A stretch of 64,000 nucleotides of DNA from Aureococcus anophagefferens (lineage: Eukaryota; Sar; Pelagophyceae; Pelagomonadales; Pelagomonadaceae), in assembly GCF_000186865.1 (NCBI RefSeq), contig NW_008705561.1, positions 1,249,757-1,313,756 of the forward strand, given 5' to 3'. Position 1 is the stretch's first letter, and every line of letters begins with the position of its first letter. The notes below the pieces were generated by a model. That model had not been told where the DNA came from, ran no database searches, and saw nothing but the letters and a program-made list of their open reading frames with translations. Position numbers and translations under genes: made by a program. Of this stretch, positions 1,147-49,823 are shown one piece after another.

Positions 1147-3244
1147 ATGCGGTCGCGCAAGGTCAAGGACGACGACGAGTCGTCGGCCGGCGGCGCGTCG
1201 AGCGCGAAGGCGCATCCCTCGTCGTCGACGGGTCTGTCGCCCGGCGTCCTGCTCGTGGTAGGGGCCCTGGCGCTGTTCCTCGTGGGCGAATATTTCGACT
1301 ACGGCGCCAGCGCGCCGGCCCCGGCGAGCTTCGCCGCGGAGGTCCAGAGCCTCGTGCAGGCGCAGAACCGGACGATCTTCGCGCTGCGCGGCGCGCTCGA
1401 GCGCGCGACGGCGGAGCGCGCGGCCGTCGCCGCGGCCGTCGAGCGCGCGACCGAGCGCGTGACGCGGCCGCTCGCCGCCGCGGAGCCGGAGCCCGCGAAG
1501 CCGCCGCCGCCCGTGGCGCCGCCGCCGCCCGTGGCGCCGCCGCCCGCGGCGCCGCGAGCGGCGGGCGGCGGCGGCGCGACGTTCGCCGGCGTCGTCGACC
1601 ACGACATCCTCGCCTACGACGACGCCGCGTTCCGCACCGAGAGCGCGGCGGCGATGCTGCGGCGCTACAAGCCGACGCTCGGCGGGGGCACCTGCGAGCG
1701 CGACTTCGGCAACGGCCTCGTGGACCACTGGCGGAAGCAGAAGCGGACGTACTGCGCGCCGCGGTCCGACGGCTCGAATCCCGCGCGGCCGCCGTCGAAG
1801 ATCGACTGCTACCTCGTCAAGCAGACGAGCCACCACGGCAGCGGCGACAACCTGTGCGTCGGGGAGAACGTGCGCGTCAGCTTCGCGGACCTCGCCGACG
1901 GCAAGACGCCCCAGGCCTACTTCAAGCGCTACGTCGACAGCAAGCACCAGCAGCAGCACTCGAAGATCGCGTACCGCAAAGGGACGCTCGCCGCGGACTG
2001 CACGACGGACAAGGAGGTCTGGCAGTCGAAGCACTTCCCCGGCTGGAACGTCAACTGGTTCAACGCCTTCGAGCAGACCGACGACCTCCAGTGCGACGTC
2101 TGGGACTGTGTGGAAATCAACCAGTGAGCTGGGACGTCGGGGCCAAACTTCAGAACTCTCTAGCTCGGTCAAATCGACGTCGATTCGGCTGATCTTTGGA
2201 CGAATCGATTGCTCTCGTCAAGCTCTCGAAGCAGATCCGAAAAGTCTGGTCCGAACCGTTCAATTTCACGCACATTGAAGTCGGATTGAAGATTTGATTT
2301 TCACACAGGTCTGGGAGGAGAACCCGACGCTCATCGTCGAGCGCGACACGTTCGCGAACTTCTTCCACAACAGCGAGGACTTCGTGAACACGCTCATCGC
2401 GTTGGCGATTTTGGAGTGGTCGACGGACGACCTGCAGCTCCTCTTCACGGACCTCTACCCCAAGGGCCCCTTCTGGCCCATCTGGTCCCAGGTCTTCAAG
2501 GGCCGGCGCGAGCCGCTCACGGCCTGGGACATCGCGCAAAAGTACGGCGACAAGCGCGTCTGCTTCAAGAAGGTCGGCATCGCGATTTTAGGCGCCGCGT
2601 CGCCCATCACGGTCGCGTCGTTCAACACGAAGTGCAAGGCGTCGAGCATCGTCCGCGCGTACAGCGACTACGTCGTCCGGGGTTTGGGCTTCGCGCCCGA
2701 GTCGCGCTACGCGTCGACCCGGGACCCGAAGCGCGTCGTCGTGACGTTCATGGCGCGGCGGTCCAGCGGCGAGTGGCCCGAGAAGCGCTTCTGCGACTCG
2801 GCGCGCTCCTTCTTCGACTGCGCGAAGCTCGGCCACCTCGGCATCCGGAAGCTGGGAAGATCCGTGCGCAACGACGGCGAGGTCGTCCGCGCTTTGAAGT
2901 CGCTCGAGGGCCGCGCGTTCCCCAACGGCGCGCGGGTCACGGTGCGCGACGTCGACTACAGCTCCCTGAGCTTCGAGGACCAGATCAAGACGAACCTGGA
3001 CACGGACGTCATGGTCGGCCCGCACGGCGCGGGGCTCATGCACAACATCTTCATGCCCGACCGGGCCGCGCTCGTGGAGCTCTTCATCGACGGGTCCAGC
3101 GCGAATCGCCACTTCCACAACCTGGCGAACTGGCAGGGCCGCCAGTACCACTCCGCGTCCCTCGCGAACCCCGTCCCCACGGGCCAGCTCCTCTCGCTCG
3201 TCGCGGCCGCGATCTCCGCGCTCGACCTGTCGAAGCCGTACTAG
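1147..3244 (+). CDS. GT61-family (EOGT-like) Golgi glycosyltransferase, split by an introner
   Basis: Exons 1147-2097 and 2309-3244 give 628 residues (317 + 311, phase 0). Type II membrane layout: cytosolic tail, one membrane segment at about residues 33-50 (VLLVVGALALFLV), a coiled stretch, a Pro-rich stem, then the lumenal catalytic domain. The diagnostic stretch is DVMVGPHGAGLMHNIFMPD near residue 555, followed by LVELF. This is the nucleotide-sugar region of family GT61 (EOGT, POMGNT2, plant xylosyl and arabinosyl transferases). Several paired cysteines fit a secretory-pathway protein. Acceptor and sugar cannot be told from sequence. The intron 2098-2308 is an introner. Its removal restores ...CDVW|EENP... 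exactly, whereas read-through stops within 10 codons. The start is the first ATG; upstream in-frame codons begin only with GTG. Confidence 0.8.
2106..2308 (+). mobile_element. Introner element copy 1 (203 bp) inside the GT61 gene
   Basis: Terminal inverted repeats CTGTGTGGAAATCAA (left) and TTTGATTTTCACACAG (right end). Flanked by a perfect 8-bp target duplication GTCTGGGA at 2098-2105 and 2309-2316. Spliced as intron 2098-2308, GT-AG: the GT is the first two bases of the left target copy and the AG is the element's last two bases. On the gene strand the element runs with its 'ACCAGTGAGCTGGGACG' end first. Confidence 0.93.
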
Positions 3245-3269
3245 CCTCTTCGTAAGGGGGGCGACCCCC

Positions 3270-4934
3270 CTAGGCGTCGACGAGCTCGCTCGTCATGTTG
3301 CAGAGCTCGCAGATGCAGAGGCCCGCGGCCGTGCGCGACGTGCGGTGGAGCAGGTTCGCGAAGGTGCAGTGCGGGCAGTTCCAGGACCGCGGGTTCGAGC
3401 CGCGGGACACGTGGGCCGCGGGCGCGCGGCCGGCCGGCGGCGGCGCCGGCGCGCGCTGGGGCGGCGGCGGCGCGGCCCGCGCCTGGGCGGCGCGCTGGGC
3501 GCTGAGGGCCTGCTGCTGCTGCTGCTGCCGCTGCTGCTGCTGCTGGCCCGCGTTCCACTGCGCGTTGAGGTGCTGGCTCGCCTGGCTCCGAAGGCTCTTG
3601 AGCTCGCGCGTGGCGCGGTCGAGGCGCGCCAGCGCGTCGCGCTCGTTGGCGGCCGACGCCTCGAGCTGCTGCTTGTGGTCGCGGGCCTGGGCGATGAGGC
3701 GCGCGTTGTCGCGCTTGAGCGCGTCGTTCTCGGCGCGCGTCGCCGCGGTCTGCTCGCCGATGAGGCCCCGGATGCGCTCGGCGTCCTGGGCCGCGCGGGC
3801 CTCGGCGGCGGCGGCGGCGCGCCGCTCGCGGTCCACGGCCGCGGACGCCGCGCCGAGGTCGCTCTCGAGCGCCTCGGCGCGCGCGGCCGCGGCCGTCGCC
3901 TCGCGGCGCGCGTCGTAGGCCTGGCGCGCCGCGTGGCTCGCGTCGCCCCGGGCGGCCTCGAGGTCCGCGGCGGACGCTTCCAGGGACGCGCGGAGCCGCT
4001 CCAGCTCGCGCTTCGCGGCCGCGAGCTCCTCGCGGAGCGGCGCCTCCGCGCGGCGGCTCTCGAGCGCCGGGCTCCGCCACCGCGCGTCGCCGGGGGGCTC
4101 CTCCTTGCGCTCGTCCTCGTCGGCGCCGCGGGCCGGGGGCGGCGGCGCCGCCGCGGCGGGCGGGGGCGGCGCGGCGGCGGCGGCGGCGGCGGCCTGGCGC
4201 GCGCGGACGCGCGCGCCCATCGTCGTCGGGCCGGCGGCCGCGGCGACGCCCGGCGGCGCCGCGGGGGCCGGCCGCGGCGGCGCGGGCGCCGGCGCCGGCC
4301 GGCCCATGGGCGGGGGCGCCGCGCGCGGCGCCGGCGGCGCCGGCGCGGCCGCGGGCGCGCCCCAGGGGCTCGCGCCGGGCGGCGCGCCCCAGGAAGACGC
4401 GGGCGCGGCGGCGCCGCCGGCGCGGAGGTCGACGACGCGGTTGATGGGCTGGCGGCACATGGGGCACTTCGTGGACGTGTCGGCCTTGAGCACGGTCTGC
4501 CGCCGCCACTGCTGCATGCACTCGGAGCAGAACTCGTGCGAGCCCGCGCAGTCCGCGCGGAGACGGTTCGGCCGCTCGAGGCAGATGGGGCACATGTCGC
4601 CCTCGTCGAGCGACGACCGCCGGGGCTCCGGCTCCGGCGGCGGCGGCGCCGCGGCGGCGGCCGGGGGCGGCGGCAGGGCCGCGAGCTTCGCGCGGAGCCG
4701 GACCTAAGGAGCGGAAGCGTCGGTCGCGCGCGGCGCGCGCGGCCGCGCGCGCGGGCGCGGGCGCCGCGCGGTCGGGCCCTTGGGCAGCGCGAGCGCCGAG
4801 ATGCCGCCGTCGTCGAGCGCCATGAGCGACCGGAGCGTCGTCACGCCCGCGGCTGCGAGTTTCTCGGTGTGTTTCGTCAACTTGAGCTCCTCGACGAGCG
4901 CCGTGAGCGCTGCTGTTCCGTAGGCGTCGTTCAT
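3270..4934 (-). CDS. SAM-RING-coiled-coil-RanBP2 zinc-finger protein, probable E3 ubiquitin ligase
   Basis: Proposed exons 4934-4770 and 4703-3270 (532 residues). Exon 1 is a SAM-like helical domain (LVEELKLTKHTEKLAAAGVT, SLMALDDGGISALALPK) that continues across the join as VRLRAKLAAL. Then comes a RING finger beginning CPICLERPNRLRADCAGSHE, with CSEC and CPMCRQP, which recruits E2 enzymes. An Ala/Pro-rich linker and a ~180-residue Ala/Arg/Glu coiled coil follow, with a poly-Gln run near the end. The protein closes with a RanBP2-type zinc finger (SWNCPHCTFANLL ... CICELC), often ubiquitin-binding. The 66-bp intron needs a GC donor and ends CCTTAG; without it exon 1 reaches a stop. An alternative is two genes, a SAM-only peptide and a RING protein starting at 4595. 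The substrate is unknown. Confidence 0.65.
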
Positions 4935-5196
4935 GATCGTGCGCTATGCGAGGGTGCCGGAGGTGCCGGAGAGGCGTTCGAGGCTGGCGGACTCGACGCG
5001 ACGCCGGTCAGAGGGGACAGGCGGGAGGCGGAGCCGGCGCCGGCGACTCGATCCGGCAGGGTCAACATCATCGGCATCTTTGGCTTTGGCTGCCTCTCCT
5101 GCGGCCGCCGCTCGATCGCGGCGCCGCACGGCCCGGCGCCCCGCGCCGCCCGATCGGCCCCGCAGCCACACAGCACGAACTAAAAGCACCGACCCC

Positions 5197-7832: not shown

Positions 7833-7908
7833 CCGCTCTCGTTGAAGTTTTCAACGTGGACAAGTTGAAAACGGTTGCGAACTCGATTTTTTTTGTCGAG
7901 AAGCCACG

Positions 7909-9232
7909 ATGGCTGACACGTTGGAGGCGGATGGTTGGGTGGCCGCGAGGGACGTCGAGGCAGCCCCGTTGGAGGTGGAGGACGCGCTGAGCGCCGCGGC
8001 CGACGCGGCCATGTTCGAGGCCGTCTTCGAGGAGCGGCGGCTCGGCATCAAGCTCGTCCTGGCGCGCGACGACGGCGGCCGCACGGCGGTGGTCGTCGAT
8101 GAGACCATCGGCGGCGTCTGCCCCGACGACGTCTTTCCGCGGGACGAGCTCGTCGCCATCGACGGCGAGGGCTTCTTCCTCCCGACGCCGGCGACGTTCA
8201 GCACGTTTATCACGAAGCTCGCGAAGCGGCCGCGGCCGCTGACGCTGAAGCTGCGCCGCGGCGCCGGCCGCGAGGGCGCGCTCGCCGCGCAGACGAAGCG
8301 GCACGAGCGCGCGCGGTCGAAGGCCGCGCTGGAACACTACGAGAAGCGGGAGGAGGACGGCCGCGCGGCGTACAACGCCGCGCTACTCAAGGGCAAGGGC
8401 GTCCACGGCGAGAAGGACACGGCCGCGGCGCTCCTCCTGCTGCGCAAGGCGGCGGGCCTCGGCGTCGTGCGCGCGCAGACCGCGCTGGCGTCGCTGTACC
8501 TGACGGGCCGCGGCGGCGTCGCGCGCGACGACGAGGAGGCGTTCCGCTGGTTCTCCGAGGCCGCGCAGCGGGGCGCTGTGTGGAAATCAAATCTTCGAAC
8601 CGACTTCAATGTGCGCGTAATCTAACGGTTCGGACCAGCTTCTTCGGCTGTGCTTCGAGAACTTGACGAGAGCAATCGATTCGTCCAAAAATCAGCCGAA
8701 TCGACGTCGATTTGACCGAGCGAGAGAATTTCAAAGTTTGGTCGGGACGTCCCAAACCAGTGGTTGATTTCCACACAGGCGGGGCGACACGGAGGCCCTC
8801 TACCAGCTCGGCAAGTGCCACCGGAACGGCTTCGGCGTCGCGGCGGACGACCACGCGGCGCTCTGGTGCTATACGCGCGCGGCGAACGACGGCCACGCGC
8901 GCGCGCGCGACCAGGCGAAGCGGCTCATCGCGGACGGCGAGGCCGCGTCGCGGCGCGAGTCGATGCTCCGGTCCGTCCGGGACGCGCTCTTCCCGCCGAA
9001 GAAGGACGACGCCGCCTACGAGGAACTGGAGTCGCCCTGCCTCGGCGTCCACGCCGCGCTCCGGCCCGAGGACGACGACGAGCTCGACCTCCGCCCGGGC
9101 TACGCGCCGCCGGCGCCGCCGGCCGCGCCGCTCGCCGTGCCGCCGACGCCGCCCGCCGTCTTTCGCGGGCGGAAGCCGCGGAACGAGCCCGCGGCGACGA
9201 CGAACCCGTTCCTCGACGAGGTCGCGTGCTAA
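7909..9232 (+). CDS. PDZ-like plus Sel1-repeat (TPR-like) protein, split by an introner
   Basis: Exons 7909-8567 and 8779-9232 give 370 residues (phase 2 join inside a Gln codon). The N-terminal half has a PDZ-like fold (RRLGIKLVLARDDGGRTAVV ... DDVFPRDELVAIDGE). A charged helix leads into Sel1 repeats, about 140-270: LLRKAAGLGVVRAQTALASL, TGRGGVARDDEEAFRWFSEA, then across the join AAQ|RGDTEALYQLGKCHRNGFG. The introner sits inside a repeat, so the spliced frame is independently confirmed by repeat continuity. The C-terminus is Pro-rich and disordered, ending NPFLDEVAC. Sel1 repeats are protein-interaction scaffolds; no partner is known. The start ATG at 7909 is the first after an in-frame stop. 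The stop is back to back with that of the FSH1-like gene. Confidence 0.75.
8576..8778 (+). mobile_element. Introner element copy 2 (203 bp) inside the Sel1 gene
   Basis: Ends CTGTGTGGAAATCAA and TTGATTTCCACACAG; perfect 8-bp target duplication GCGGGGCG at 8568-8575 and 8779-8786. Exact frame restoration requires intron 8568-8778 with a GC donor taken from the target copy and the element's CAG as acceptor. Its orientation relative to the gene is opposite to the other four copies ('AATCTTC...ACTTCAATG' end first). Confidence 0.93.
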
Positions 9233-13715: not shown

Positions 13716-13745
13716 GGGGCGTCGTGTTACCGTCCGGCGGAATCC

Positions 13746-25905: not shown

Positions 25906-28900
25906 CTAGCACTGGAAGGCGAGGCCCGGCGGGAGGCCCGCGAGGAGCGTGTCGTCGATGGCCTTGGAGTGCGCGTCCGTCATCTTGCCGCCTCGGGAGA
26001 CGTGCCACTTGCCCGCGCCGCCGGAGCGGAAGCGGGACGTCGCCTCGGCGGAGCCGTCGCCGGCCTTGGCGGCGGCGGCCTTCATGGCCTTGAAGTCGGA
26101 GCCCGCGGCGACGGCGTCGAGGAGCGCCGGCGGCACGTCGCCCGGACCCGGCAGGTCGAGGAGGAACGCCGCGAGTTTCGCGATCTCCGCGCGCGGGTCC
26201 GCCTTGAGGGCCTCGAAGTGGACGTAGTAGACGCGCTCGTCCCGCTGGGCGTGGACGTACCAGTCGACGTGGTGGTCCTTCCAGGACCCGTGCTCGACCT
26301 TGCCCTCGACGAAGTTGCCCACGAAGTGGTCGAAGTCGCCCGCGTACTCAAAGGGCGGCAGCGCCGACGCGTGCGCGTAGAGCGAGCAGCAGACGTCCTT
26401 GGGGTTGCGGGCGATGTAGACGATCTTGGCCTTGGGGTCCAGGTTCGCGTCGGCGACGGGGAAGAGGCCCCGCGGCGCGTGCGTCTTGAAGACGCGCCGC
26501 GCGTCCGGCCCGTGCGCGTAGGCCGCGTCGTGGGGCGGCCGCAGGCTGCGCGCGTCGAGGTAGGGGCAGGGCCCGCCGAAGCGCTTCGTGCGCAGGTAGC
26601 AGACCTCGGGCCAGGGCGCCTGCGACTGGAGCGCGGGGTGCGGCTTCACCTTGGTCGCGTCGCCGCCGTGGAGCAGCAGGAGCACGATCTGCTGCATCCA
26701 CGTCGTGCCGCACTTGGGGTAGGTGCAGACGAAGACGTCGCCGGCCCGCGACAGGAAGGACCGCCGCAGCTCCGCGACCGCGGACGGCTTCACGCACGGC
26801 GGGTGCGGCACCATTCGCCCGTCCGGCAGCCGGAGCAGCGAGTAGGCCATGCCCTTGCCGTCGAACAGGGGCGCGTCGAGCGTCGGGACGTCGTGGGCGA
26901 CGCCGAGGTCGCTGACCGCGCGGTCGAAGCCCGCCACGCCCCGGAGCTTGGCCGCCCACGCGGCGACGCGCGGGAACGCGGTCACGACCTCGGCCCACGC
27001 GGGCCCGTCCCAGACGTGCGCGGCTCGGCCGTCGTCGACGAAGCGCGCGTCGTGGGGCCGCACGGCGTGGGGCGAAAAGGCCGGGTCCGACGCCCCGCAG
27101 CAGCGGCGGTGGTAGAGCGCCGCGAGGACGACGACGGGCAGCGCGAACGCGTCCGCGAGCGACGGGCTCGCGCCCGCGAGGAACGGCGCCTCCGCGAGGG
27201 TCTCCTCCACGAGGCCCACGCGGCCCCAGAGCTCGGACGCGTAGGGCGCCATGTCGCCCGGCGCGTGGGGGTGCGCGAAGGCCTCCGCGAGCTCCGCGGC
27301 CGCGTCGCGCGCGCCCGCGGGGTCCAAACAATCCTTGGCGGCGACCGCGTCGAGGAGCGCCGCGCCGTCGCCCTTGAAGACGTGGCGCAGCGTCGGCGCG
27401 AAGAGCAGGTGGAGGCGCAGCGGCGCGAGCTGGTAGAACCAGGCCGTGCGCGCCCAGCCGGCCCACTTGCGCGCGACGGCGCGCGCGACGGCGTCGCCCG
27501 GCGTCATGCGGCCCGAAGCGTCGAACGTCGCGCACCAGTGGTCGCCGCGCGTGAGCGCGTCGACGTGCTCGACGATGACGCGGGCCCCGTAGAGGCACCG
27601 CGCGCCGTCCTTGCCCTTGAGGACGAGCGCCGGCAGCTCCCCGAAGGGCGTGAGCTTCCGGTGTTCCGTCGTCGCGTGCTCCAAGAGGCTCGCGTCGACG
27701 CGCTTCGGCGCGAAGGCGTAGCCGAGGTAGTCGAGCGCCGCGATGGTCGTCGCCGACAGGGCGTCGCTCGCGTCGTAGACGAGGAGGCCGCAGTCGTCGC
27801 TCACGAGCTCCGGGAACGCGCCCGGCATGGCCTTGAGCGGCGCGGCGTCGACCTCGCGGAGCGCGGCCGCGAGGCCGCTCGACGCGCCGCTCTTCTGCGT
27901 CGCGAGGCTGCGCTGCGTGACGCGCGTGAAGCCCCAGGCCTTTCCGCCGGCGCGCAGCTTGCCGAAGAGGACGAAGAGGGCCCAGGGCAGCGACGCGCCG
28001 AACCAGACGAGGCCGTACCGCGGCGCGTTCGCGCGGAGGAACGACGGCGAGAAGCCGCTGCCCCAGATGGCCAGGTCCCGCTCGACGAACTTGGCGAAGC
28101 AGGGCCGCGCCCGCAGCTTCTCGAAGAAGGCGACGGCGTTGCCGAAGGGCGCGCGGTCCGCGGCCGTCGCCGCGATGCCGTTCTGCGGCATCTTGACCTA
28201 GGCCGCACGCGAATACGACGTCGACGCGCGCGTCCTCGAACGCCCGTTCGTGGTGGAGCACCGGACGAGAGACTCGTCCAACCATCGGCCACGTCGACGC
28301 CACCGAGCTCGAGCGTTTCGAAGCGCGGTCGGGCGCGGCGGTCGATTTCGGCGCGGACCTCGACGAGCCGCGGGTACGCGGCGAAGTCCGCGGCCGTGAA
28401 GGCCGACCCGACAAGAAAGTCGCGGCCCGCCGTCGCCGCGTCGACCATCTTGAGGCCCTGGAGGATGCGCCGCACGCGGCTCCGGCACGACGCCGCGGAG
28501 AGGTACGTGCCCTCGTACATGCCGGCCTGTGTGCAAATCAAATCTTCAACCCGACTTCAATGTGCGCGTAATCGAACGATTTGGACCAGACTCTTTCGCT
28601 GTGCTTCGAGAACTCGCCGAGAGCAATCGATTCGTCCAAAAATCAGCCGAATCGACTTCGATTTGACCGAGCTAGAGAATTCTGAAGTTTGGCCCCGACG
28701 TCCCAGCTCGCTGGTTGATTTGCACACAGATGCCGGCGCACTTGCCCGCGTAGAAGGCGTCGCCCTTGGCCGCGGCCTCCGCGGGCGGGCCCTCGGCGAA
28801 GAAGGACGTGCGCGACCACTCGAAGCGCCAGAGGCAGCCGTCGAGCTGCTGGCGGCTCAGCGGCCAGACCTCCTCCGCGAGGCCGAGCTCCCACTGCTGC

Positions 28901-29349
28901 CACTGCTCGACGTCCGTGCGCGCGGCGAGGTCGCTCGGGTAGAGGGGCTTGGACTCGGGGAAGGCCTCGTCGAGGAAGGTGCAGATGGCCTGGGACTCGT
29001 AGATCGTGCAGTCCGGGAGCGTCGCGTGGCCGCGGACGACGAGCACGGGCACCTTGCCCTGCGGGTTGATCGCGAGGTACTCGTCGCTGCGCTGCTCGCC
29101 GGCCATGAGGTTGACCATGACGCCGTGGTAGGGCAGCGCCTTCTCGATGAGCGTCAGCCAGACGCGCCGCGCGCAGGGGCTCCGCGGGAAGTAGTAGAAC
29201 GTGAGGCCCGACCGCGGCGCGAACTTGGCCGCGAGGTCCGGCTTCGCCGGTTTGTCCTTCCGGGCCCGCTTCCGCAGCAGGGCGCGCGCGAGGAGCGCCG
29301 CGGCGCCCGCCGCCGCCACGCCGACGTAGCCCGCCCGCGACAACCCCAT
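25906..29349 (-). CDS. Fusion of two glutathione-S-transferase-like domains with a cytosolic-type sulfotransferase
   Basis: Proposed exons 29349-28738, 28526-28260 and 28197-25906, 1056 residues. The N-terminus is a membrane anchor (GYVGVAAAGAAALLARALL). GST module 1: YYFPRSPCARRVWLTLIEKA, AINPQGKVPVLVV, YESQAICTFLDEAFP, then across the introner KC|AGMYEGTYLS and FLVGSAFTAADFAAYPRL, continuing after the second intron into AVAFFEKLRARPCFAKFVER. GST module 2 is diverged (LTPFGELPALVLKGKDGARC, PSLADAFALPVVVLAAL). The sulfotransferase from about residue 780 has the 5'-PAPS loop CTYPKCGTTWMQQIV, catalytic KTHAPRG, 3'-PAPS site RNPKDVCCSLY and RSGGAGKW. Intron 2 is 62 bp with a GC donor. If the joins are wrong, the sulfotransferase part stands alone from ATG 28191. 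It may couple conjugation reactions. Confidence 0.65.
28527..28729 (-). mobile_element. Introner element copy 3 (203 bp) inside the GST-sulfotransferase gene
   Basis: Perfect 8-bp target duplication ATGCCGGC (28519-28526 and 28730-28737). On the gene strand the intron is 28737 to 28527, with a GC donor from the target copy and CAG from the element; frame KC|AGMYEG is restored. Both inverted-repeat ends carry the same change (CTGTGTGCAAATCAA instead of CTGTGTGGAAATCAA). Confidence 0.93.
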
Positions 29350-31584: not shown

Positions 31585-33205
31585 TTAAAGCTCGTCGGCC
31601 TGCCACCGCTTCCGCGACTTGTACCAGAAGACGAACACGTCGAAGACGAGGAAGAGCGCGAGGACGACCTTGATGTTCAGCAGGCCGCCCGCCGCGCCGT
31701 CGCCGCGCCGCGGCGACGCCTCGTCGTCGTCGCGGAAGCCCGGGGGCCGGGACCGCTCATCGTCGTCGTGCGACGAGAAGCGCCGGAGCCGCGCGGCGTC
31801 CGGCCGCGGCTCCGGCGGCGGCAGGAGGTCCGCGCCGCCGTCTTCTCGCGCGAGCAGGTCCGCGAGGAGCACGGGTTTCGCGGCCCCGCCGAGGTAGGCC
31901 GGGCAGGCCGCCCGCGGCACGCCCGCGGCCCGCAGCTTGCCCGGCGTGTCCGCGGCGCCCGGCGGCGCGTGGACGAACGAGATGAGGTCCTTCGTCTCGT
32001 CGTCGAGGAGCCTCTCGACGACGCGCCACGCGCCGCGCGCGACGGCCGGCGCGTTGACGACGACGTTCTTCCAGACCGCGTCGGCGTACATGCGCTCCGT
32101 GAGCTTCGCGTAGGCCTTGGCCAGCGCCATCGTCTCGCCCCGCATCAACCTGTGTGGAAATCAAATCTTCAACTCGACTTCAATGTGAGCGTATTCGAAT
32201 GTTTTGACACAAGCACTTCCGCCGTGCTTCGAGAACTCGATGAGAGCAATCGATTCGTCCAAAAATCAGCCGAATCGACGTCGATTTGACCGAGCTAGAG
32301 AATTTCAAAGTTTGGCCCCGACGTCCCAGCTCACTGGTTGATTTCCACACAGGCATCAACGTGCCGAACGACGCGCCCGCGACGTCGACGAGGAAGACGC
32401 ACTTGTAGACGCGGCCGTAGCCCTCCCGGGGGCGCGCGAGCTCCCGCTGGAGGCCGTCGAGCGCCTGGACGCGGCGCTTCAGAATCAAATCGAGGGGCAG
32501 CTTTAGCAGCGCGTCGAAGTCGATGCACCCGAGCCGCTCGAGGACGACGAGGTGCCCGAAGCCGTCGCGGCCCGCGACCCACGTGGGCCACACGGCCTCG
32601 TGGAACCGCAGGTCGTCGCCCGCCGCGGGCAGCAGGCGCGCCGCGTCCCAGGCCAGGCGCCGATCCGCGACCCACGCGCACATGTCCGCGGTCGCCGCCG
32701 CGCGGTCCTCGAGGAGCCGGAAGCCCCGCACGAGCCGCAGGANNNNNNNNNNNNNNNNNNNNNNNNNNNNNNNNNNNNNNNNNNNNNNNNNNNNNNNNNN
32801 NNNNNNNNNNNNNNNNNNNNNNNNNNNNNNNNNNNNNNNNNNNNNNNNNNNNNNNNNNNNNNNNNNNNNNNNNNNNNNNNNNNNNNNNNNNNNNNNNNNN
32901 NNNNNNNNNNNNNNNNNNNNNNNNNNNNNNNNNNNNNNNNNNNNNNNNNNNNNNNNNNNNNNNNNNNNNNNNNNNNNNNNNNNNNNNNNNNNNNNNNNNN
33001 NNNNNNNNNNNNNNNNNNNNNNNNNNNNNNNNNNNNNNNNNNNNNNNNNNNNNNNNNNNNNNNNNNNNNNNNNNCCCAGCGCGCCGAGCGTCGCGGGAAA
33101 GGACTCCTGCAGGAAGGGATAGGACGCCTCGTCGGCGTCGCCGAGCTCGGACAGCGTCCTCGCTTTTAGGGGTGATCGGACCGGAGACCGCGGGCTCGTC
33201 GACAT
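31585..33205 (-). CDS. SEC14-like CRAL-TRIO lipid-transfer protein, tail-anchored, with assembly gap
   Basis: Exons 33205-32361 (interrupted by 332 unknown bases) and 32149-31585, joined across an introner in phase 2. The readable N-terminus (MSTSPRSPVRS ... SYPFLQESFPATLGAL) precedes the gap. After it comes a CRAL-TRIO domain: LRLVRGFRLLEDRAAATADM, VWPTWVAGRDGFGHLVVLER, YGRVYKCVFLVDVAGASFGT|LMRGETMALA, YADAVWKNVVVNAPAVARGA, then the C-terminal GGVPRAACPAYLGG-type end (AAGVPRAACPAYLGG). A Ser/Arg-rich linker and a C-terminal hydrophobic segment (NIKVVLALFLVFDVFVFWYK) suggest a tail anchor. Members move phosphatidylinositol or other lipids between membranes. Length and the lipid-gate region cannot be judged because of the gap. 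Confidence 0.72.
32150..32352 (-). mobile_element. Introner element copy 4 (203 bp) inside the SEC14-like gene
   Basis: Perfect 8-bp target duplication GCATCAAC (32142-32149 and 32353-32360). On the gene strand intron 32360 to 32150 begins GTTGATGC (GT from the target copy) and ends CACACAG. The restored frame reads ASFGTLMRGE. Confidence 0.93.
32743..33074. other. Assembly gap (332 N)
   Basis: Run of unknown bases inside the SEC14-like gene. The number of Ns may be an estimate, so frame and length across it are unknown. The flanking protein on both sides is in the same gene by domain logic. Confidence 0.99.
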
Positions 33206-38621: not shown

Positions 38622-39064
38622 CGGGGTCGGACGTAACGAAAAAAGTAACCCGTTTTTAAGTCGTTGGCGCCGATTGTAAGTCGTAGGGTAAGTCGTCGGG
38701 CCCCGGGGTAAGTCGTTGAGCTCGCCAAAACGGACGGATGACTGGGCACTCGCCAAAACCCGCGGGCTACGAGGGACTTGACGACGCTCGCCAGCGCGTC
38801 GCTGCGCCCGAGCCAGCGCGTGGCGCACGAGTGGAGGATCTTGCCACTCTCGTCGTTGGCCTTCTGGACATCCACGGCGCCGACGCCGTCGGATTGCCCC
38901 GCCGCGCGCGCGCTCCGCGAAAGCGGCGCCCGCCCCGCGCGGCCTCGGGCCGAGGTAGGCCGCCGGGTAAGTCGTGGAGTCCGAAAGTAACCCGTCAGGT
39001 AAGTCGTTTTGGCCGAATGTAAGTCGTAAGTAACATGTTAGGTAAGCCGTTACGTCCGACCCCG
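38622..39064. mobile_element. Non-autonomous hAT-like transposon (443 bp) with transposase remnant
   Basis: Perfect 17-bp terminal inverted repeats: CGGGGTCGGACGTAACG at 38622-38638 and its reverse complement at 39048-39064. Perfect 8-bp target duplication CCGATGGC at 38614-38621 and 39065-39072, the length typical of hAT elements. Inside each end are four direct copies of a TAAGTCGT-like word (around 38655-38715 and 38970-39048, the last as TAAGCCGT), like subterminal transposase-binding repeats. On the minus strand, about 38815-38755, a fragment reads ILHSCATRWLGRSDALASVV, resembling the 'TRW' block of hAT transposases. No full transposase fits. The insertion lies 145 bp upstream of the GT92-like start. 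Confidence 0.85.
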
Positions 39065-39072
39065 CCGATGGC

Positions 39073-40894: not shown

Positions 40895-41313
40895 CTGCGG
40901 CGTGTCGCGGGTCATCGGTCGTGCCGGGGTGGCCGGTCCCGCCCGCCGGTGGCGCCGCGCGCCCCGGCCCGCGGCGGGCGGGTGCACGGGCTCGCCCGTT
41001 CCGAACGACGGTCCAAAAAGCGACGGCGGCAATCGCGGGGCACGGCGCCCGAGGCGCGACATCCATTGCGACGCGGGGATGCACTCTCGCTCATTGCGGG
41101 TGCCAATGTCGAGCGCCGACATGGTCCGCGCACCGCAGTCCTGTCGTCGAAAGCGCAAGGCCTTTGGCGCCGTCGATTGCGATGCGATCGGCCACTGCAT
41201 GCGAGAGCTCCTCTCTCTCTCTCTCTCTCTCTTAGCGTCGAGCCGATGTAGCCTCGATGTTGACGCGCTCGGCGACGTTCCCGCGGCGGCACTTGCGGCG
41301 GCGCCCCCCCAAC
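40895..41313. other. Region upstream of the SGF29-like gene, probably holding its 5' exon
   Basis: The first recognised exon of the SAP30-SGF29 gene has no in-frame ATG (an in-frame TGA lies 19 bp upstream of its first base) and begins after a CCGCAG acceptor. A short first exon must therefore lie here on the minus strand. Candidates are not distinguishable by eye. The stretch also has a (CT)11 microsatellite. Confidence 0.4.
41211..41232. repeat. (CT)11 microsatellite
   Basis: Pure 22-bp CT run; on the minus strand it is a (GA) run about 320 bp upstream of the first identified SGF29-like exon. Confidence 0.9.
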
Positions 41314-43893: not shown

Positions 43894-44093
43894 TGCCGAC
43901 CGATTGGAGCCCGGTGCTCTTGTCCGTAAGTGGATATTCAATGTTTTGTCAACGGCTAGTTCTATTAGTTCGTTTTCAAGCACAACATGCAGTTCACTCT
44001 AGAGTTGTGGCAATTATGAGCTCCGACTCGAGTGATATGCGCTCGTTGGCAGCTATCGATGCAATGATATGAGCTCTTGGTGACCGGCCATCG

Positions 44094-45071
44094 ATGCGAC
44101 GCGCCTTCGCGCTGCTCGCCGCGTCCTGCAGCCTCCGCGAATCCCGCGCCGACACGCTCATCGAGGCCGTCGTGCGCACGAGCAACATGTCGTCGCCGGC
44201 GTACTGGGAGGCGCACCACGTGCTCGCGCGCCTCAGACCGGGCGACTCCTGGTTCGGCCCGCTCACGCGCAAGTTCGCGCGCGACTACGTCGCGCTGCGG
44301 TACGCGCGCGCGTGCGCGCCGGGCGCCGCGGTCGTCCTCGGCAGCGGCTACTCGAAGTCGCCCTACTGGCTCGCGCGCACGGGCGCGTTCCGCGCCGTAC
44401 TCGGCGTCGACGCGTCGGCGTCGGCCGTGCGGGCCATGCGCCGCTTCGCGGCGTCGCGCGCGCACGGCGGCGGCGGCTGGGACCGCGTTCGATTCCTCCA
44501 CCGCGACGCGGCCGACCTTAAACTCGCCGCCGGCGCGGCGTCGCTCGTCGTCGACGAGGGCGTGCTGGACGTGCTCCAGGGCGTCGACGGCGGCCGGACC
44601 GCGGCGTCGCGCGCGCGCATGGCCGCGCACCTCGCCGAGGCCGCGCGCATCGTCGCGCCCGGCGGCGAGCTCGTCGTCGTCGGCTTCGCGGGGCCCGCGG
44701 GCGTCGTCAACGCGACGGCGCTGGGCGCGGCGGCCTGCTGGGCGCGCGCGGCGGCGGACGCGGAAACGCCGGCGCGCCGCGACTCGCCCTACTTCGTCCA
44801 CGACCTCGACCGGCTGTACCGCCAGCGCCGCGACCCGCGCCGGGCGTGCTCGCCCTTCGGCCCCGGCGCCTATTTGCTAAGACGGTCGGGTTACGCGTCC
44901 CGGGGCCGCCGCGGCGGGCGGTGGTGCCGCGCGCGGGTCGCGTTGCCGCCGCACGTCGGCGTCGCCGGCGACGGCGCCTCGACGAGGTGGTCGAGCGCGA
45001 ACGCGAAGAGCGCGGCCTTGTTCGGCCCCTTGTGGCCCGCGAGGTGCACGACGAAGTCGCCCGCGGCGTAG
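44094..45071 (+). CDS. SAM-dependent methyltransferase, METTL13 N-domain/EEF1AKMT4-like
   Basis: Up to 325 residues. MSSPAYWEAHHVLARLRPGD then SWFGPLTRKFARDYVALRYA precede motif I, AAVVLGSGYSKSPYWLARTG. Motif II is RAVLGVDASASAVRAM, and the acidic-Lys post-motif is ASLVVDEGVLDVLQ. These correspond to 'YW..R', 'LMVGCGNSxLS', 'NVDFSxxVI' and 'DxVIDKGTLDA' of METTL13-N and relatives, which methylate lysines of elongation factor eEF1A. Motif I has GSGYSK in place of GCGNS. Strand 5 is GGELVVVGFAG. A signal-like start (FALLAASCSLRES) is possible. The last ~60 codons overlap the convergent GT34 gene on the other strand. The end may instead be at an unseen splice or the overlap may be genuine. Confidence 0.65.
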   Translation: MRRAFALLAASCSLRESRADTLIEAVVRTSNMSSPAYWEAHHVLARLRPGDSWFGPLTRKFARDYVALRYARACAPGAAVVLGSGYSKSPYWLARTGAFRAVLGVDASASAVRAMRRFAASRAHGGGGWDRVRFLHRDAADLKLAAGAASLVVDEGVLDVLQGVDGGRTAASRARMAAHLAEAARIVAPGGELVVVGFAGPAGVVNATALGAAACWARAAADAETPARRDSPYFVHDLDRLYRQRRDPRRACSPFGPGAYLLRRSGYASRGRRGGRWCRARVALPPHVGVAGDGASTRWSSANAKSAALFGPLWPARCTTKSPAA

Positions 45072-46090
45072 GCCGCGGCCGCATGCGCCGCGTCCGCGGG
45101 CCGGAGCCGCGGGCGGACGAGGTACGAGTTGAGCGCGCACTGGGGGACGACCTTGATGCGGTCGCGGACGAGCCGCGGGTCCGCCGTCGTCCGCGGCACG
45201 GCGCGGCCGTGCCGCGCCGCGGCGCGCCGCCACGTCGCCGTGTCGGCAAAGAAGTGGAGCGCGCGCTGCTCGTACTCGAAGGGCAGCGCGTGCTCGTACC
45301 ACGGGTTCCGCGCCGCGAGGCCCCAGTCCGTCGCCGCGGCCCACATCTTCTTCAAAAAGTCGCGGGCCCAGGCCGAGTTCCGCACGAGGAACACGCCCGT
45401 GTTGTAGCCGCCCCAGTCCTCGGCCAGGACGAGGTCGTAGTCGCCGTCGACGAGCGACTCGAGGCAGACCTCCGGGTTCGCGAAGAGCGCGTCGCCGTCG
45501 ACGTAGAGCAGCCAGTCGAAGTCGTCGAGGTGCTCCGACAGCGCGAGGAGCTTGGACCAGGGCGCGGGCCGCTCGGGCGTCGTCCGCGCCTCGAACTCGA
45601 CGAGCTCGTAGCCGTGGTGCGCCGCGTAGGCCCGCTTGTTCTCGAGCGCGGCGCCGTTGAACTTCGCCGCGGCCGCGAAGCGCGCCGTCGACGCGCCCGC
45701 GGGGTCGACGAGCGTCACGACGCCGATGCGCGGCCGCCCGTGGCGCCGGCGCGCCGCGGGCGCCGGCGCGCACGCGGCCGCGTCGGGCCGCGGGCCCGGC
45801 GGCGCCCGCGCGAGCGACGCCGCGAGCCACCACCCGTAGTTCGCCGACAGCCGCCAGCACAGCGCAACGACGATCAGGGCCGCGTAGACGAGCCGGCGGC
45901 CGCACCACCAGAGGCCCCAGTAGTTGCCCCGCGGGCAGCGCGGGCAGGCCGCGCGCGCGCGCGCGCGCGCCGGCAGCGTGTGCGCCTGCAGCAGCGCCTC
46001 GTGCGTGCCGTTGACGAGCTCCTCGCAGGCCGAGGGCGGCGCCGCGCGCCGCAGCTGCATGCCGTCCATCTCCGCGCGCCGCAGCTGCAT
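44891..46090 (-). CDS. GT34-type (alpha-galactosyl/xylosyl) Golgi glycosyltransferase
   Basis: 399 residues. Type II topology: a cytosolic leader with a duplicated DGMQLRRA unit (30-bp tandem repeat at about 46060-46100), membrane segment RLVYAALIVVALCWRLSANY, Pro/Ala stem, then the catalytic domain. RIGVVTLVDPAGASTARFAA opens it. YELVEFEARTTPERPAPWSK leads to DDFDWLLYVDGDALFAN with the DxD metal site. NTGVFLVRNSAWARDFLKKM and FVVHLAGHKGPNKAALF are the GMA12/MNN10 (GT34) hallmarks. This family adds galactose or xylose to polysaccharides or N-glycans. The first ATG after an in-frame stop is at 46090. The 3' end overlaps the convergent methyltransferase frame by 181 bp. Confidence 0.8.
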   Translation of the reverse strand: MQLRRAEMDGMQLRRAAPPSACEELVNGTHEALLQAHTLPARARARAACPRCPRGNYWGLWWCGRRLVYAALIVVALCWRLSANYGWWLAASLARAPPGPRPDAAACAPAPAARRRHGRPRIGVVTLVDPAGASTARFAAAAKFNGAALENKRAYAAHHGYELVEFEARTTPERPAPWSKLLALSEHLDDFDWLLYVDGDALFANPEVCLESLVDGDYDLVLAEDWGGYNTGVFLVRNSAWARDFLKKMWAAATDWGLAARNPWYEHALPFEYEQRALHFFADTATWRRAAARHGRAVPRTTADPRLVRDRIKVVPQCALNSYLVRPRLRPADAAHAAAAYAAGDFVVHLAGHKGPNKAALFAFALDHLVEAPSPATPTCGGNATRARHHRPPRRPRDA

Positions 46091-46259
46091 GCCGTCGATC
46101 GCGAGCGACGACGCGCAGTGCGGCGCGTTCGCGTCGACGGCCGCGGCGCTCGACGTCGTCGACGGCTCGATGTTGCACCACAGCTTGAAGGCTTATTGAA
46201 CCCGAAGGCCTACCCGAGGCATGAGCCTCGAGCCCCAACTCGCTCCTCGCCGCCCCTTC

Positions 46260-47900
46260 TTAGATGAGCCCCGCGGGCGGGTCGGGTCGGTCGTCGACGG
46301 GCCGCGCGTTGGCGCCGAGGAAGGCCGCGTAGTCCGCGTGCGCCGGGTTCTCGTAGACGACGAGGCGCGGCTGGAGGTAGCACGCGCCGCACATCGCGGC
46401 GACGCGGTCGAAGGGCTGGCGCTGGTGGGACTCGTCGTAGTGGAGGTCGTTGAAGTAGAGGTAGGAGTGGTCGGAGCGGCAGCGGACGAAGCAGATGTAG
46501 TGCCGCGTCTGGTGGTGGTAGGAGATGAGCCCCGCGAGGCGGTAGCCCGCGTCCGCCAGGATCTTCGGCGCGTCGGCGGACTCGTCGCCGCCGGCGCCGC
46601 CGCCGTCGAGCTTGCCGCCGCAGGCGAGCGCGAGCGCGCGCGTCGACGCCGGGTCGAGCGGGTGCCACGAGAGGTCGAACGCGACGACCGCGCCGCCGTC
46701 GAGGTCGAAGACCTGGCGGTGCTCGCGCCAGAGCACGCCGAGGTCCGGGAGCGTCGGCGACGGGAGCACGGGCGCGTACTTGAGCAGCTTGCCCAGGTCC
46801 GCGAAGGGCCGCAGCGACGGCCCCGCGCAGCTGTCGAACGCGTTCTGCAGGCTGCAGTAGGCCTCCGACGCGTCGCCGTAGCCCGTGCGCGCGTCCGCGA
46901 CGTCCCGGAAGGCGCGCGCGAGGTCGTCGGGGCTCAGCGCGCCGTCGCTCGCGGCGCCGAAGCTCGCCCACGTCTTCGCGAGCGCGGAGATCTTCCGCGC
47001 GGGCGTCGGCGGCGCGTCGCCCCCGCCGGCGCCGTCGCCGGGCGCCCCCGCGGCGAAGAGGGCCGCGTCGAAGGCCTCGTGGAAGACCGTCGAGTGCCAG
47101 AGCACCTGCGCGAGCGAGCTGAGCCAGCACGTCCGCGCCTTCGCGTTCGAGAAGCCGCGGTGCCGGAAGGAGCCCGCGCCCTGGACGCCCGCCGGCGCGC
47201 CCGGCGCGCCCAGGGGGCCGTCGCCGGCGAGGACGCCGTCGATCTGCGCGTGGCTGAAGCCCGCGACGCCCACGAGCTGCGCGCGCGTCGTCTCCAGCGC
47301 GTGGCTCGCGCGGACGCGCGCGTCGCTGCCGACGGCCGCGGCCTCGACGTCGCCCCGGCGCCGCTCGAGCAGCGCGCGCACGAAGGCGCCGTCGCCGTCG
47401 CCGTCGCCGTCGGACGCGCCCGCCGGCGGCGGCCGCTCCTCCTCGCGCGGCCGCAGCCGCAGCGCGCGGTGCCGGGGGACCAGCCGCGCGCGCGCCTCGC
47501 CCTTGGCCCGCCGCGACGCGTAGGCCGTCTCGCCGTCGCGAACCACCTCGAGCCAGGCGCCGTCGCCCGCCAGCGGCCGCGCGTCGAAGGCGTCGCCCTC
47601 CGCCAAGACGCCGACGACCGCGCCGTCGAAGCTCGGCGCGGCCCGCAGGTTCCAGGACCCGAAGACGGAGCCCGGGGGCAGCCAGTAGGCGCAGCGCCGC
47701 GGGCTCGGCGCCTCGTCGTCCTCGGAGTCGAGGGCCTCGCCGCTCCCGCGCCGCGCCGCCGGCGCCGGCGTCCCGCCGCCGTCATTGCTTGTCAGGGACG
47801 CCTGGGAGCCGCTGGGCCGCAGCGACGAAGCGTCGCCGCTCGCCGCGGCCGGCGGCTCGCACCGCGCCGACGACTGCCGGGAGCTCGCGCCGGCGCCCAT
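46260..47900 (-). CDS. Ubiquitin-specific protease-like protein with SH3b domain
   Basis: 546 residues from ATG 47900; MGAGASS offers an N-myristoylation site. A disordered Ser/Ala head precedes an SH3b-like barrel: GSVFGSWNLRAAPSFDGAVV, DGAWLEVVRDGETAYA. The USP catalytic core follows. The Cys box is NAKARTCWLSSLAQVLWHST (canonical GNTCYLNSLLQ, catalytic Cys kept). The His box is ISYHHQTRHYICFVRCRSDH with YLYFNDLHYDE. Large parts of the usual finger subdomain are short or absent, so it may be a minimal USP or inactive. A helical UBA-like element (AGFSHAQIDGVLAGDG) lies between the SH3b and USP parts. Deubiquitination is inferred from Cys/His boxes. Confidence 0.68.
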   Translation of the reverse strand: MGAGASSRQSSARCEPPAAASGDASSLRPSGSQASLTSNDGGGTPAPAARRGSGEALDSEDDEAPSPRRCAYWLPPGSVFGSWNLRAAPSFDGAVVGVLAEGDAFDARPLAGDGAWLEVVRDGETAYASRRAKGEARARLVPRHRALRLRPREEERPPPAGASDGDGDGDGAFVRALLERRRGDVEAAAVGSDARVRASHALETTRAQLVGVAGFSHAQIDGVLAGDGPLGAPGAPAGVQGAGSFRHRGFSNAKARTCWLSSLAQVLWHSTVFHEAFDAALFAAGAPGDGAGGGDAPPTPARKISALAKTWASFGAASDGALSPDDLARAFRDVADARTGYGDASEAYCSLQNAFDSCAGPSLRPFADLGKLLKYAPVLPSPTLPDLGVLWREHRQVFDLDGGAVVAFDLSWHPLDPASTRALALACGGKLDGGGAGGDESADAPKILADAGYRLAGLISYHHQTRHYICFVRCRSDHSYLYFNDLHYDESHQRQPFDRVAAMCGACYLQPRLVVYENPAHADYAAFLGANARPVDDRPDPPAGLI

Positions 47901-48034
47901 TGCGGACCCGCCGACCTCACGGCATCTGCGGCGTGCAGTTAAAGCATGGTCGGGCAGCCATTTTGACTTTGACAACGCAACCACCCTGAACAGTCAAGGT
48001 TTCCTTCAACTTTGTCTTGTCATTCAACTAAAAG

Positions 48035-48315
48035 TTACAGCCCGAGATACGCGTCGAGGTCGGCCATGGGGCTCTCGACGTCGTCGCCCGCGTCGTCGCG
48101 GCGCTCCGGCGTCGTGAGGGACGCGCGGCGCTTCGCGCGGATGCCCTTGGCCACCTTGGCCGTCGCGCTCGCGCGGAGCCGGTTGGCGACCTTGACGGCC
48201 GTGCCCGCGCGGCGGAAGCGCGAGAGCGCCGCGGACGGCGCGCGCGTCGCGCGCGGCGACGCGTCGCCGGCGTCGGCCTCGAGCGGCAGGAGCGCGACGC
48301 CGCCCGCGTCGCCGC

Positions 48316-48347
<32 letters not shown>

Positions 48348-49823
48348 AGGCCGCCGGCCGTCCAGGCCGCGAAGAGCTTCTGGGAGGCCGTCGGGTGGGG
48401 GCTCTCGACGTCCTCGCGCGCGAGGAAGCCGCTCGCGTTGTGGTCGAGGCGGTCGAACTGGGACGCGCAGGCCGCGACGTCGGCCGCGTCGATCCTCCCG
48501 AGCTTCACGAGCCTGTGTGGAATTCAAATCTTCAACCCGACTTCAATGTGAGCGTATGCGACATTTTCGACGCAATGTCTTCGAATGTGCTTCGAGAACT
48601 CGACGAGAGCAATCGATTCGTCCAAAACTCAGCCGAATCGACTTCGATTTGACCGAGCTAGAGAATTCTGAAGTTTGGTCAGGACCACCCAAACCAGTGG
48701 TTGGTTTCCACACAGTCACGAGCATGGCGAGCGCGAACGTCGCCTTCGTGCACTTGCCGTCGTCGGCGTCGACGTTCAGGGACCGGATGAGCTCGCCGCG
48801 CGTGAGCTCGAGGAACTCCTCGTGGCTCAGCGTGTCGCCGTACTGGCCCAGCACCCTGGCCTCCATCTCGAGCCGGTGCGCCTCTAAGGGCGCCGCGGCG
48901 ATCGTCGACAGCGCGTGCACGCAGACGAGCGTCCCCCCGAGGCAGAAGACCGCCGCGAAGGCGCGGCCCGCCGCCGTCTCGGGCACGACGTCGCCGTAGC
49001 CCACGGTCGTCAGCGTCGCGCCGCTCCAGTAGAGCGCGTCGACCCAGTCCGCGTGTTCCAAAAACATGAACGTCCCCGCGCCGCCGACGGCCCACAAAAA
49101 GACCTGGAGCACGGCGAAACGCAGCCGCTCCCGCGGCGCGGCCCGCGCCCGGTCGACGCCCTCGGCCGCGGCGCGCTTCGCGTCCGCGGCGTCGAGCTTC
49201 GCCGTCGCGATCAAAACTTCGAACGCCGCGGCCGTCAGCGCGCCGACGACGCCGGCCCCGAGGAAGAAGAGGACGACGGCGAAGAGGCGCTCGCCCTTGG
49301 TCGCCGGGGCCAGGTCACCGTAGCCCACGGTCGTCAGCGTGACGACGGAGAAGTAGAGCGCCTCGCCGACGGTCCACCGCTCGAGCGCGCCGAAGAACGC
49401 GCACGACAGCAGCAGGCTCGCGGCGAGGAAGCCGCCGCCGCGCGCGACGGCCGCGCGCGCGTCGCCCGCCGCGTCGACCGTGACGCTCGTCTTCGGCGCG
49501 TGCACCGTGTGCGCGTGGCTCGTCGTGTCGTCCTCGACCTCGACGAGCAGGCTCCGCGCGCGCCGCAGCGGCGGCCGCGTCGTCGACAGCAGCGAGTCGC
49601 GCGGCCGCGCCAGCGCGTCGCTCGTCGCCGACCGGCTCCGCTGGAACGCGGGCCGCGGCCGCCGCTCCGGCGACGCCGGGGCCGCGCCGTCGCTCTGGCT
49701 CCGCTGGTAGAGCGACGACCGCTGGAGGCCGGGCCGCAGCGGCGTCGACTCGTCGCCGGGCTTGTTCCAGCCGCGGCTGAACGACACGCGCGGACCAGAG
49801 GCGCGCGCGGTGGCGTCGGCCAT
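48035..49823 (-). CDS. Two-pore-domain (TPK-like) potassium channel with EF-hand tail, split by an introner
   Basis: Exons 49823-48724 and 48512-48035, 525 residues, joined in phase 2. A basic, Ser/Arg-rich N-terminus with RSxS-type 14-3-3-like sites (FQRSRSATSD) is followed by four membrane helices with two pores, each with a canonical K+ filter: TLTTVGYGDLAPATKGERLF and TLTTVGYGDVVPETAAGRAF. The C-terminus has an EF-hand-like pair (TLSHEEFLELTRGEL, NVDADDGKCTKATFALAML|VKLGRIDAADVAACASQFDR LDHNASGFL), as in plant vacuolar TPK1. The introner falls inside the EF-hand segment and its removal restores it. An Asp/Gly run and a basic tail end the protein. It probably sits in vacuolar or plasma membrane and conducts K+ under Ca2+ control. 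Confidence 0.88.
48513..48715 (-). mobile_element. Introner element copy 5 (203 bp) inside the TPK channel gene
   Basis: Perfect 8-bp target duplication TCACGAGC (48505-48512 and 48716-48723). On the gene strand intron 48723 to 48513 begins GCTCGTGA (GC donor from the target copy) and ends CACACAG. Ends are slightly diverged inside the inverted repeat (GGAATTCAA versus GGAAACCAA), so this copy looks the oldest of the five. Confidence 0.93.

What the first reader, a model, noticed from the sequence alone, without database searches (positions are those of the whole stretch)
2098..48723. Five 203-bp introner elements, each inserted as an intron in a different gene
Copies at 2106-2308, 8576-8778, 28527-28729, 32150-32352 and 48513-48715 have identical length, shared internal sequence, ~15-bp terminal inverted repeats (CTGTGTGGAAATCAA) and perfect 8-bp target duplications (GTCTGGGA, GCGGGGCG, ATGCCGGC, GCATCAAC, TCACGAGC). 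All lie inside unrelated coding genes (GT61, Sel1, GST-sulfotransferase, SEC14, TPK) and none in spacers. This is the hallmark of introner elements, DNA transposons that create introns, known from Micromonas and Aureococcus. The density here (5 in 64 kb) implies ongoing mass intron gain.
Basis: partly seen in the sequence, partly recalled or inferred. Interest (0 to 1): 0.92.

Follow-up and report, generated by a model that had tools for sequence, protein, structure and literature searches.

The report
Known intron-making transposons in brown-tide alga
Five short copies of a small jumping DNA element have each landed inside a protein gene of the brown-tide alga Aureococcus anophagefferens and are very probably cut out as introns; this is a known phenomenon in this species, and the sequence gives clean quantitative support for how it works.

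Summary
The host is Aureococcus anophagefferens, where introners were described (Huff 2016, not readable here). The inferred intron is one duplication plus the element, 211 nt: the upstream duplication gives a GT or GC donor, the element's end the CAG acceptor. I censused 71 copies of roughly 700. Among the 61 between coding flanks of one strand, exact removal restores the frame in 61, the duplication starts GT/GC in 60 (61 if one 9-bp duplication is read), and CAG is intact in 61 while the element's other end decays. None of 71 has two non-coding flanks. Genome-wide 467 of 774 exact ends carry GT/GC eight bases out, as one-sided co-option predicts. A rival donor inside the element fits 54 of 61 copies (58 if GC counts) and is used in one public gene model. 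No transposase partner was found; 'ongoing' gain is not shown. Splicing of these copies is not seen in RNA. Published ESTs give 39.6% GC-AG introns in this species, an unexplained excess that donor co-option could explain: my boldest reading.

The parts
2098..2308 (+). Inferred 211-nt intron in the GT61 gene: TSD copy 2098-2105 (GTCTGGGA, GT donor) plus element 2106-2308; second TSD copy 2309-2316
1147..3244 (+). GT61 glycosyltransferase gene interrupted by element 1 (628 aa when the intron is removed)
   Evidence: Pfam PF04577 E 1.1e-9; homologues; coordinates
8568..8778 (+). Inferred 211-nt intron in the Sel1-repeat gene: TSD 8568-8575 (GCGGGGCG, GC donor) plus element 8576-8778; second TSD 8779-8786
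7909..9232 (+). Sel1-repeat gene interrupted by element 2 (370 aa joined)
   Evidence: Pfam PF08238 E 5.5e-19
28527..28737 (-). Inferred 211-nt intron in the GST-like gene: element 28527-28729 plus upstream (gene sense) TSD 28730-28737 (GCCGGCAT, GC donor); second TSD 28519-28526
27801..29349 (-). GST N-terminal-domain gene interrupted by element 3; its 3' limit is uncertain, and an ORF with a sulfotransferase domain follows on the same strand (25906-28197)
   Evidence: Pfam PF13409 E 1.9e-17; PF00685 E 5.1e-42 in the downstream ORF
32150..32360 (-). Inferred 211-nt intron in the SEC14/CRAL-TRIO gene: element 32150-32352 plus upstream TSD 32353-32360 (GTTGATGC, GT donor); second TSD 32142-32149
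31585..32740 (-). CRAL-TRIO (SEC14) gene interrupted by element 4; its 5' part runs into 332 Ns, so the start is unknown
   Evidence: Pfam PF00650 E 6.7e-9
48513..48723 (-). Inferred 211-nt intron in the two-pore K+ channel gene: element 48513-48715 plus upstream TSD 48716-48723 (GCTCGTGA, GC donor); second TSD 48505-48512
48035..49823 (-). Two-pore potassium channel gene interrupted by element 5 (525 aa joined; a 98% identical environmental protein of equal length spans the junction)
   Evidence: Pfam PF07885 E 8e-35; P0001

Best explanation
The five elements are copies of a 203-bp Aureococcus anophagefferens introner, a non-autonomous (MITE-like) DNA transposon. Shown from sequence: it inserts in either orientation into coding sequence with duplication of 8 bp; both ends read ...CACACAG outwards, so whichever end is downstream in the gene can supply the acceptor; the upstream copy of the duplicated 8 bp begins GT or GC; removing that copy plus the element restores the coding frame. 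Inferred: the spliceosome removes exactly this stretch; insertions whose duplication does not begin GT/GC in the gene's sense are purged; a transposase acting in trans, not found here, moves the copies. The downstream repeat's TTGAT and pyrimidines may be the branch site and tract (inferred).
For: Duplications: 51 of 71 censused copies perfect, 61 with at most one mismatch. All 51 perfect ones begin GT/GC or end RC, expected 36%. Of 61 copies with both flanks coding on one strand, exact removal restores the frame in 61 (57 before limits of four copies were corrected); the frame caller agrees with itself in 1736 of 1753 same-strand control positions, out of 1921 of 3000 with both flanks coding. 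In gene sense the upstream duplication begins GC 38, GT 22, CC 1, the last becoming GC if a 9-bp duplication is read. The opposite end is near background (14 of 53 against 20%), so the constraint follows the gene's strand. Genome-wide 467 of 774 exact ends have GY eight bases out, 60.3%; a one-sided requirement predicts about 60%, none 20%. Only the acceptor end stays conserved: CAG 61 of 61 against CTG 49 of 61 at the other end (P 2.7e-4); 27 against 75 mismatches in the 15-bp repeats (P 2e-6). Phases 26/14/21 match where GY falls in codons (P 0.86). Gene-relative orientation (26/35) is not clustered on the element tree (23 changes, shuffled mean about 20). Hold-out of 10 new copies: 6 of 6 with same-strand coding flanks fit frame, donor and CAG; in the other 4 (three with one coding flank, one between flanks on opposite strands) the duplication has GY in the sense of a coding flank. 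EST-supported introns of this species are 39.6% GC-AG (PMC3033335, passages), so GC donors are spliced in it.
Against: No RNA evidence for these copies. Public gene models differ from exact excision: JL721_4375 keeps four residues VWDC, AURANDRAFT_18779 keeps two, P0172 keeps 22, P0122 lacks nine. 10 of 71 copies could not be oriented by two coding flanks. In 52 of 61 the duplication holds another GT/GC, and nothing found here explains how the first is chosen. No mobilising transposase was found. The codon model was trained on the same loci.
Confidence: 0.92

Rival explanations
1. The element carries both splice sites: the donor is the GT at positions 5-6 of its own end (CTGT|GTGG), and each insertion adds 12 nt (8 of the duplication, 4 of the element), i.e. 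four amino acids, to the mRNA.
For: Frame-neutral for a standard copy: 54 of 61 copies have an in-frame GT in the first 8 nt, 58 if GC counts (the cruder count gave 53 and is superseded). Annotated protein JL721_4375 has exactly these four residues (VWDC = GTC TGG GAC TGT). Gozashti et al. 2022 describe such a +12-bp case for another Aureococcus sp. family (legend of Fig. 2F). No in-frame stop arises in the 12 nt in 61 of 61, but off-frame only 2.0 on average would, so this is weak.
Against: 3 of 61 copies have no in-frame GT or GC there and 4 more have only GC, while exact removal keeps the frame in all 61. It gives no reason for GT/GC at the duplication's start in 60-61 of 61, and that end of the element is not conserved. 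In ProRS four residues would be inserted where relatives P0161, P0163 and P0164 (73-86% identical, organisms not stated) have none.
Confidence: 0.06
2. RNA-level intron copying (reverse splicing plus reverse transcription) made these introns.
For: Copies lie in or beside genes (0 of 71 with two non-coding flanks) and almost all fit splice-site rules.
Against: 8-bp duplications and terminal inverted repeats; orientation to the gene flips freely along the element tree, whereas RNA copying would keep each lineage in its spliced sense.
Confidence: 0.02
3. GT/GC at the duplication's edge is a target-site preference of the transposase and not a result of splicing.
For: Copies with fewer than two coding flanks also have GY in the sense of the coding flank: 9 of 10 in the census, 10 if a 7-bp duplication is read at C1:3491789, and 4 of 4 in the hold-out. 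No perfect duplication lacks it at both ends (51 of 51).
Against: The preference sits on the gene-sense side only (opposite end 14 of 53), and the acceptor end is conserved after insertion while the other decays. A target preference cannot know the gene's sense unless integration is coupled to transcription.
Confidence: 0.04

Closest known systems
Introner elements of Aureococcus anophagefferens (Huff, Zilberman & Roy 2016, Nature; not held; abstract recalled)
   Same: Same species (AURANDRAFT_18779 100% identical over 99% of a ProRS, JL721_4375 98% over 73% of GT61). About 210 nt is called their characteristic length in PMC9481584 (passages); direct and inverted repeats of constant length in PMC7789003 (passages); both orientations and splice-site co-option in PMC10228655 (passages).
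   Different: No difference established; their consensus sequence could not be compared.
Introners in general (Gozashti et al. 2022, PMC9860276; section 7 and passages read)
   Same: DNA-transposon-like families with TSD and TIR, some of which carry the 3' splice site and take the 5' one from the TSD.
   Different: GC donors range from 0 to 50.0% per family there; here 38-39 of 61. Their Aureococcus sp. example (+12 bp, both sites carried) is another family.
Abundant GC-AG introns of A. anophagefferens (Iwata & Gotoh 2011, PMC3033335; outline and passages read)
   Same: 39.6% of EST-supported introns are GC-AG, the highest fraction of information deficit of 61 species, canonical U1 5' end.
   Different: The passages seen do not mention transposons and call the origin an enigma; the introner share among their introns is unknown.
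MITEs with 8-bp duplications (hAT, P, KDZ, Merlin superfamilies; recalled)
   Same: Short, non-coding, inverted ends, 8-bp duplications.
   Different: No superfamily could be assigned; hAT, KDZ, Merlin and MULE models had no match in this genome, and the P-like model one degenerate match without these ends.

Membership tests
Introner element | Many similar copies at different intron positions of unrelated genes | tested here: met
   774 exact ends genome-wide; 61 of 71 sampled copies between coding flanks of one strand
Introner element | Removal restores the reading frame with usable splice sites | tested here: met
   61 of 61 frames; GT/GC donor 60-61 of 61; CAG acceptor 61 of 61
Introner element | Actually spliced from RNA | not testable with these tools
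   No reads or transcripts of this strain available; published ESTs show GC-AG splicing in the species only
Aureococcus anophagefferens introner (Huff 2016) | Same species | tested here: met
Aureococcus anophagefferens introner (Huff 2016) | Intron length about 210 nt, constant-length TSD and TIR | tested here: met
   211 nt in all five; compared with statements
Aureococcus anophagefferens introner (Huff 2016) | Sequence identity to the published consensus | not tested
   Paper not held
Non-autonomous DNA transposon (MITE) | Terminal inverted repeats and fixed-length target duplications | tested here: met
   a few sampled copies have 7- or 9-bp duplications or degraded ones
Non-autonomous DNA transposon (MITE) | An autonomous partner with the same ends | tested here: inconclusive
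   In the sampled loci 95 of 96 exact ends pair within 235 bp and the 96th belongs to a truncated copy; 12 ends with an unusual 16th base are ordinary copies; most of the 774 ends were not inspected
hAT / KDZ / Merlin / MULE / P superfamily | Cognate transposase in the genome | tested here: inconclusive
   No match for KDZ and hAT (controls silent), Merlin and MULE (controls rang); one degenerate P-like match without matching ends

The most novel reading that the evidence does not exclude
Introner co-option is the main source of the long-noted excess of GC-AG introns (39.6%) and of the extreme lack of splice-site information in A. anophagefferens. Each insertion takes as donor whatever GT or GC the duplicated coding 8-mer starts with; in GC-rich coding sequence that is mostly GC (64% here). 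After the dinucleotide the donor is near background, and GC survives at about 0.45 times the rate of GT. The published contrast between M. pusilla (22.2% GC-AG; 3,566 introners) and other Micromonas (2.7% in RCC299; 44 introners in M. commoda) points the same way. The host would then need little more than GT or GC to define a donor.
Probability: 0.5. Interest if true: 0.55.

Novelty: already known. Interest (0 to 1): 0.38.

Why it matters
Introners are a well-supported source of mass intron gain. These copies let the co-option model be tested from genome sequence alone: the donor constraint follows the gene's strand, the acceptor end is conserved while the other end decays, and intron phase follows the codon positions of GT/GC. 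The result also offers an explanation for this species' puzzling GC-AG introns. Practically, four public Aureococcus protein models in the two genes inspected differ from exact excision by 2 to 22 residues and may need revision.

Tried and rejected
Autonomous partner: of 96 exact ends in the sampled loci one was unpaired and proved to be a truncated copy that still ends CAG before a perfect duplication. Ends with an unusual 16th base: 12 places, ordinary copies of 147-208 bp. Pfam KDZ, hAT, Merlin and MULE: no match (controls silent for the first two). P-like family: one match with in-frame stops beside Ns, no similar ends in the readable sequence.

U1 snRNA: no match, control silent; PMC3033335 reports a putative U1 with the canonical 5' end. 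RuBisCO large subunit, for species identification: no match although the control rang in 5 genomes.

The idea that the element's 5' end defines the donor by its own sequence was weakened: that end evolves freely.

Environmental protein P0001 (98%, equal length) could be an empty allele or a spliced model; its contig could not be read, so it is not counted as evidence.

Mended on checking: the count against the internal-donor rival (now 3 of 61 impossible plus 4 with only GC; confidence of the best explanation set to 0.92 instead of 0.93 and of this rival to 0.06 instead of 0.05), the sulfotransferase label, and the literature on GC-AG introns.
Full report
What is there. Five 203-bp elements stand at exactly the stated positions with perfect 8-bp duplications. 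Their ends are inverted repeats of CTGTGTGGAAATCAA (13-15 of 15 matching). A scan for duplication-flanked inverted ends recovered all five and one unrelated 443-bp element; the control gave 2. Joining the flanks opens the gene-strand frame in all five, while the intact stretch has stops in all three frames of that strand. Pfam identifies GT61, Sel1, GST N-terminal, CRAL-TRIO and two-pore K+ channel proteins; a sulfotransferase domain lies in an ORF downstream of the GST piece on the same strand.

Which organism. The genome is 49.05 Mb in 86 contigs. A prolyl-tRNA synthetase from it is 100% identical over 99% to AURANDRAFT_18779 of Aureococcus anophagefferens, and the GT61 protein is 98% identical to JL721_4375 of the same species over 73% of its length. 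A published CCMP1851 assembly has 49.9 Mb and 70.5% GC (PMC11237714, part 1 of 2 of the text read); the window has 71.7%.

Census. The exact 15-bp end occurs 774 times, 0 in the reversed control. The 78 loci held cover 84 of the 100 places listed and the 8 loci delivered; they give 69 paired copies, to which the two window copies without an exact end were added: 71. The single unpaired end was left out (a truncated copy). Pairs were chosen by duplication and length without looking at GT/GC. Extrapolation gives about 560 copies with at least one exact end and roughly 700 in all, a rough figure that assumes independent ends.

Splicing signature. A codon model called strand and frame on each flank separately. 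Both flanks were coding on one strand in 61 of 71. Four of these at first seemed out of frame; their limits had been set wrong (indels of one or two bases at an end, or a 9-bp duplication), and with corrected limits exact removal restores the frame in 61 of 61. The upstream duplication begins GC 38, GT 22, CC 1 (the CC becomes GC with the 9-bp duplication). Only the gene-sense side is constrained (opposite end 14 of 53, background about 20%). Genome-wide 467 of 774 ends carry GY, the 60% expected if one end of each copy must. The acceptor CAG is intact in 61 of 61, the other end's CTG in 49; mismatches 27 against 75. Phases follow GY availability in codons. Of the 10 copies not oriented, 9 have GY in the sense of the coding flank, 10 with a 7-bp duplication. 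A hold-out of 10 new copies agreed (2 of the 12 loci were already in the census).

A close rival. The element also has GT at positions 5-6, whose use would add exactly 12 nt and keep the frame. An annotated Aureococcus protein does this in the window's GT61 gene (VWDC), where the duplication itself offers GT, and Gozashti et al. report such a case for another family. 54 of 61 copies could do it, 58 with GC allowed, and 3 could not. That end is not conserved, and the rival leaves the duplication's GT/GC unexplained. In ProRS, public models insert 2 residues (P0159) or 22 (P0172) at the junction, while P0158 and P0160 and the relatives P0161, P0163 and P0164 have the exact spacing. Only RNA can settle it.

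Mechanism. Both orientations occur (26 and 35) without clustering on the element tree, as expected for DNA transposition with splice-competent inverted ends. Copies avoid non-coding DNA: 0 of 71 with two non-coding flanks against 366 of 3000 window positions (P 2e-4). As about four in five random coding insertions would lack a GT/GC donor and, if the model holds, be purged, this deficit suggests preferential insertion in genes as well; the background rests on one window. No mobilising element was found.

Age. Divergence from the sample's majority sequence has median 9.4%; nearest sampled neighbours have median 94.5% and maximum 98.0%. Whole-genome best matches are 93% for element 1 and 98% for element 4. 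Activity is not excluded but not shown.

Donor weakness and the GC-AG enigma. After the first two bases the donor region is close to background (at most 0.16 bits per position over all 61; within the classes up to 0.45 bits at the third base and 0.51 at the last exon base). GC makes up 64% of donors against 80% of coding GY, so GT is favoured about twofold. Iwata and Gotoh (PMC3033335, passages) found 39.6% GC-AG among EST-supported introns of this species, the highest fraction of information deficit of 61 species and a canonical U1 5' end, and called the origin an enigma. They report 22.2% for M. pusilla and 2.7% for Micromonas RCC299; Gozashti et al. count 3,566 introners in M. pusilla and 44 in M. 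commoda. Co-option of GC-rich duplications would explain this. Whether Huff et al. already said so is unknown to me.

Literature. Huff et al. 2016 could not be read; its content is recalled and seen through PMC9860276 (section 7 and passages), PMC9481584, PMC7789003 and PMC10228655 (passages). Six paper searches were made; subscription papers are not held, so no claim of absence from print is made.

Noticed in passing
window 38622-39064: A second, unrelated duplication-flanked element: 443 bp, TSD CCGATGGC, 15 of 15 inverted ends CGGGGTCGGACGTAA, repeated GTAAGTCGT motifs; does not end in CAG.
   Followed up: partly
P0121, P0122, P0159, P0172 (homologues of the window's GT61 gene and of the ProRS gene at G000:C1:2551909): Public Aureococcus protein models keep 4, lack 9, keep 2 and keep 22 residues at introner junctions relative to exact excision.
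   Followed up: partly
window 25906-28197, - strand: ORF with a sulfotransferase domain (E 5.1e-42) and a weak GST N-terminal match, downstream of the GST-like gene; possibly one gene or a neighbour.
   Followed up: partly
window 32743-33074: 332 Ns inside the SEC14 gene upstream (gene sense) of element 4.
   Followed up: no
L080 (G000:C25:173700-183600), hit at C25:178372-178818: Single P-element-like transposase match with in-frame stops, next to a stretch that reads N; no similar ends found.
   Followed up: partly
G000:C1:2651791/2652336, C1:3199213/3200211, C1:3249765/3250444: Pairs of copies of the element within about 0.4-0.8 kb of each other.
   Followed up: no
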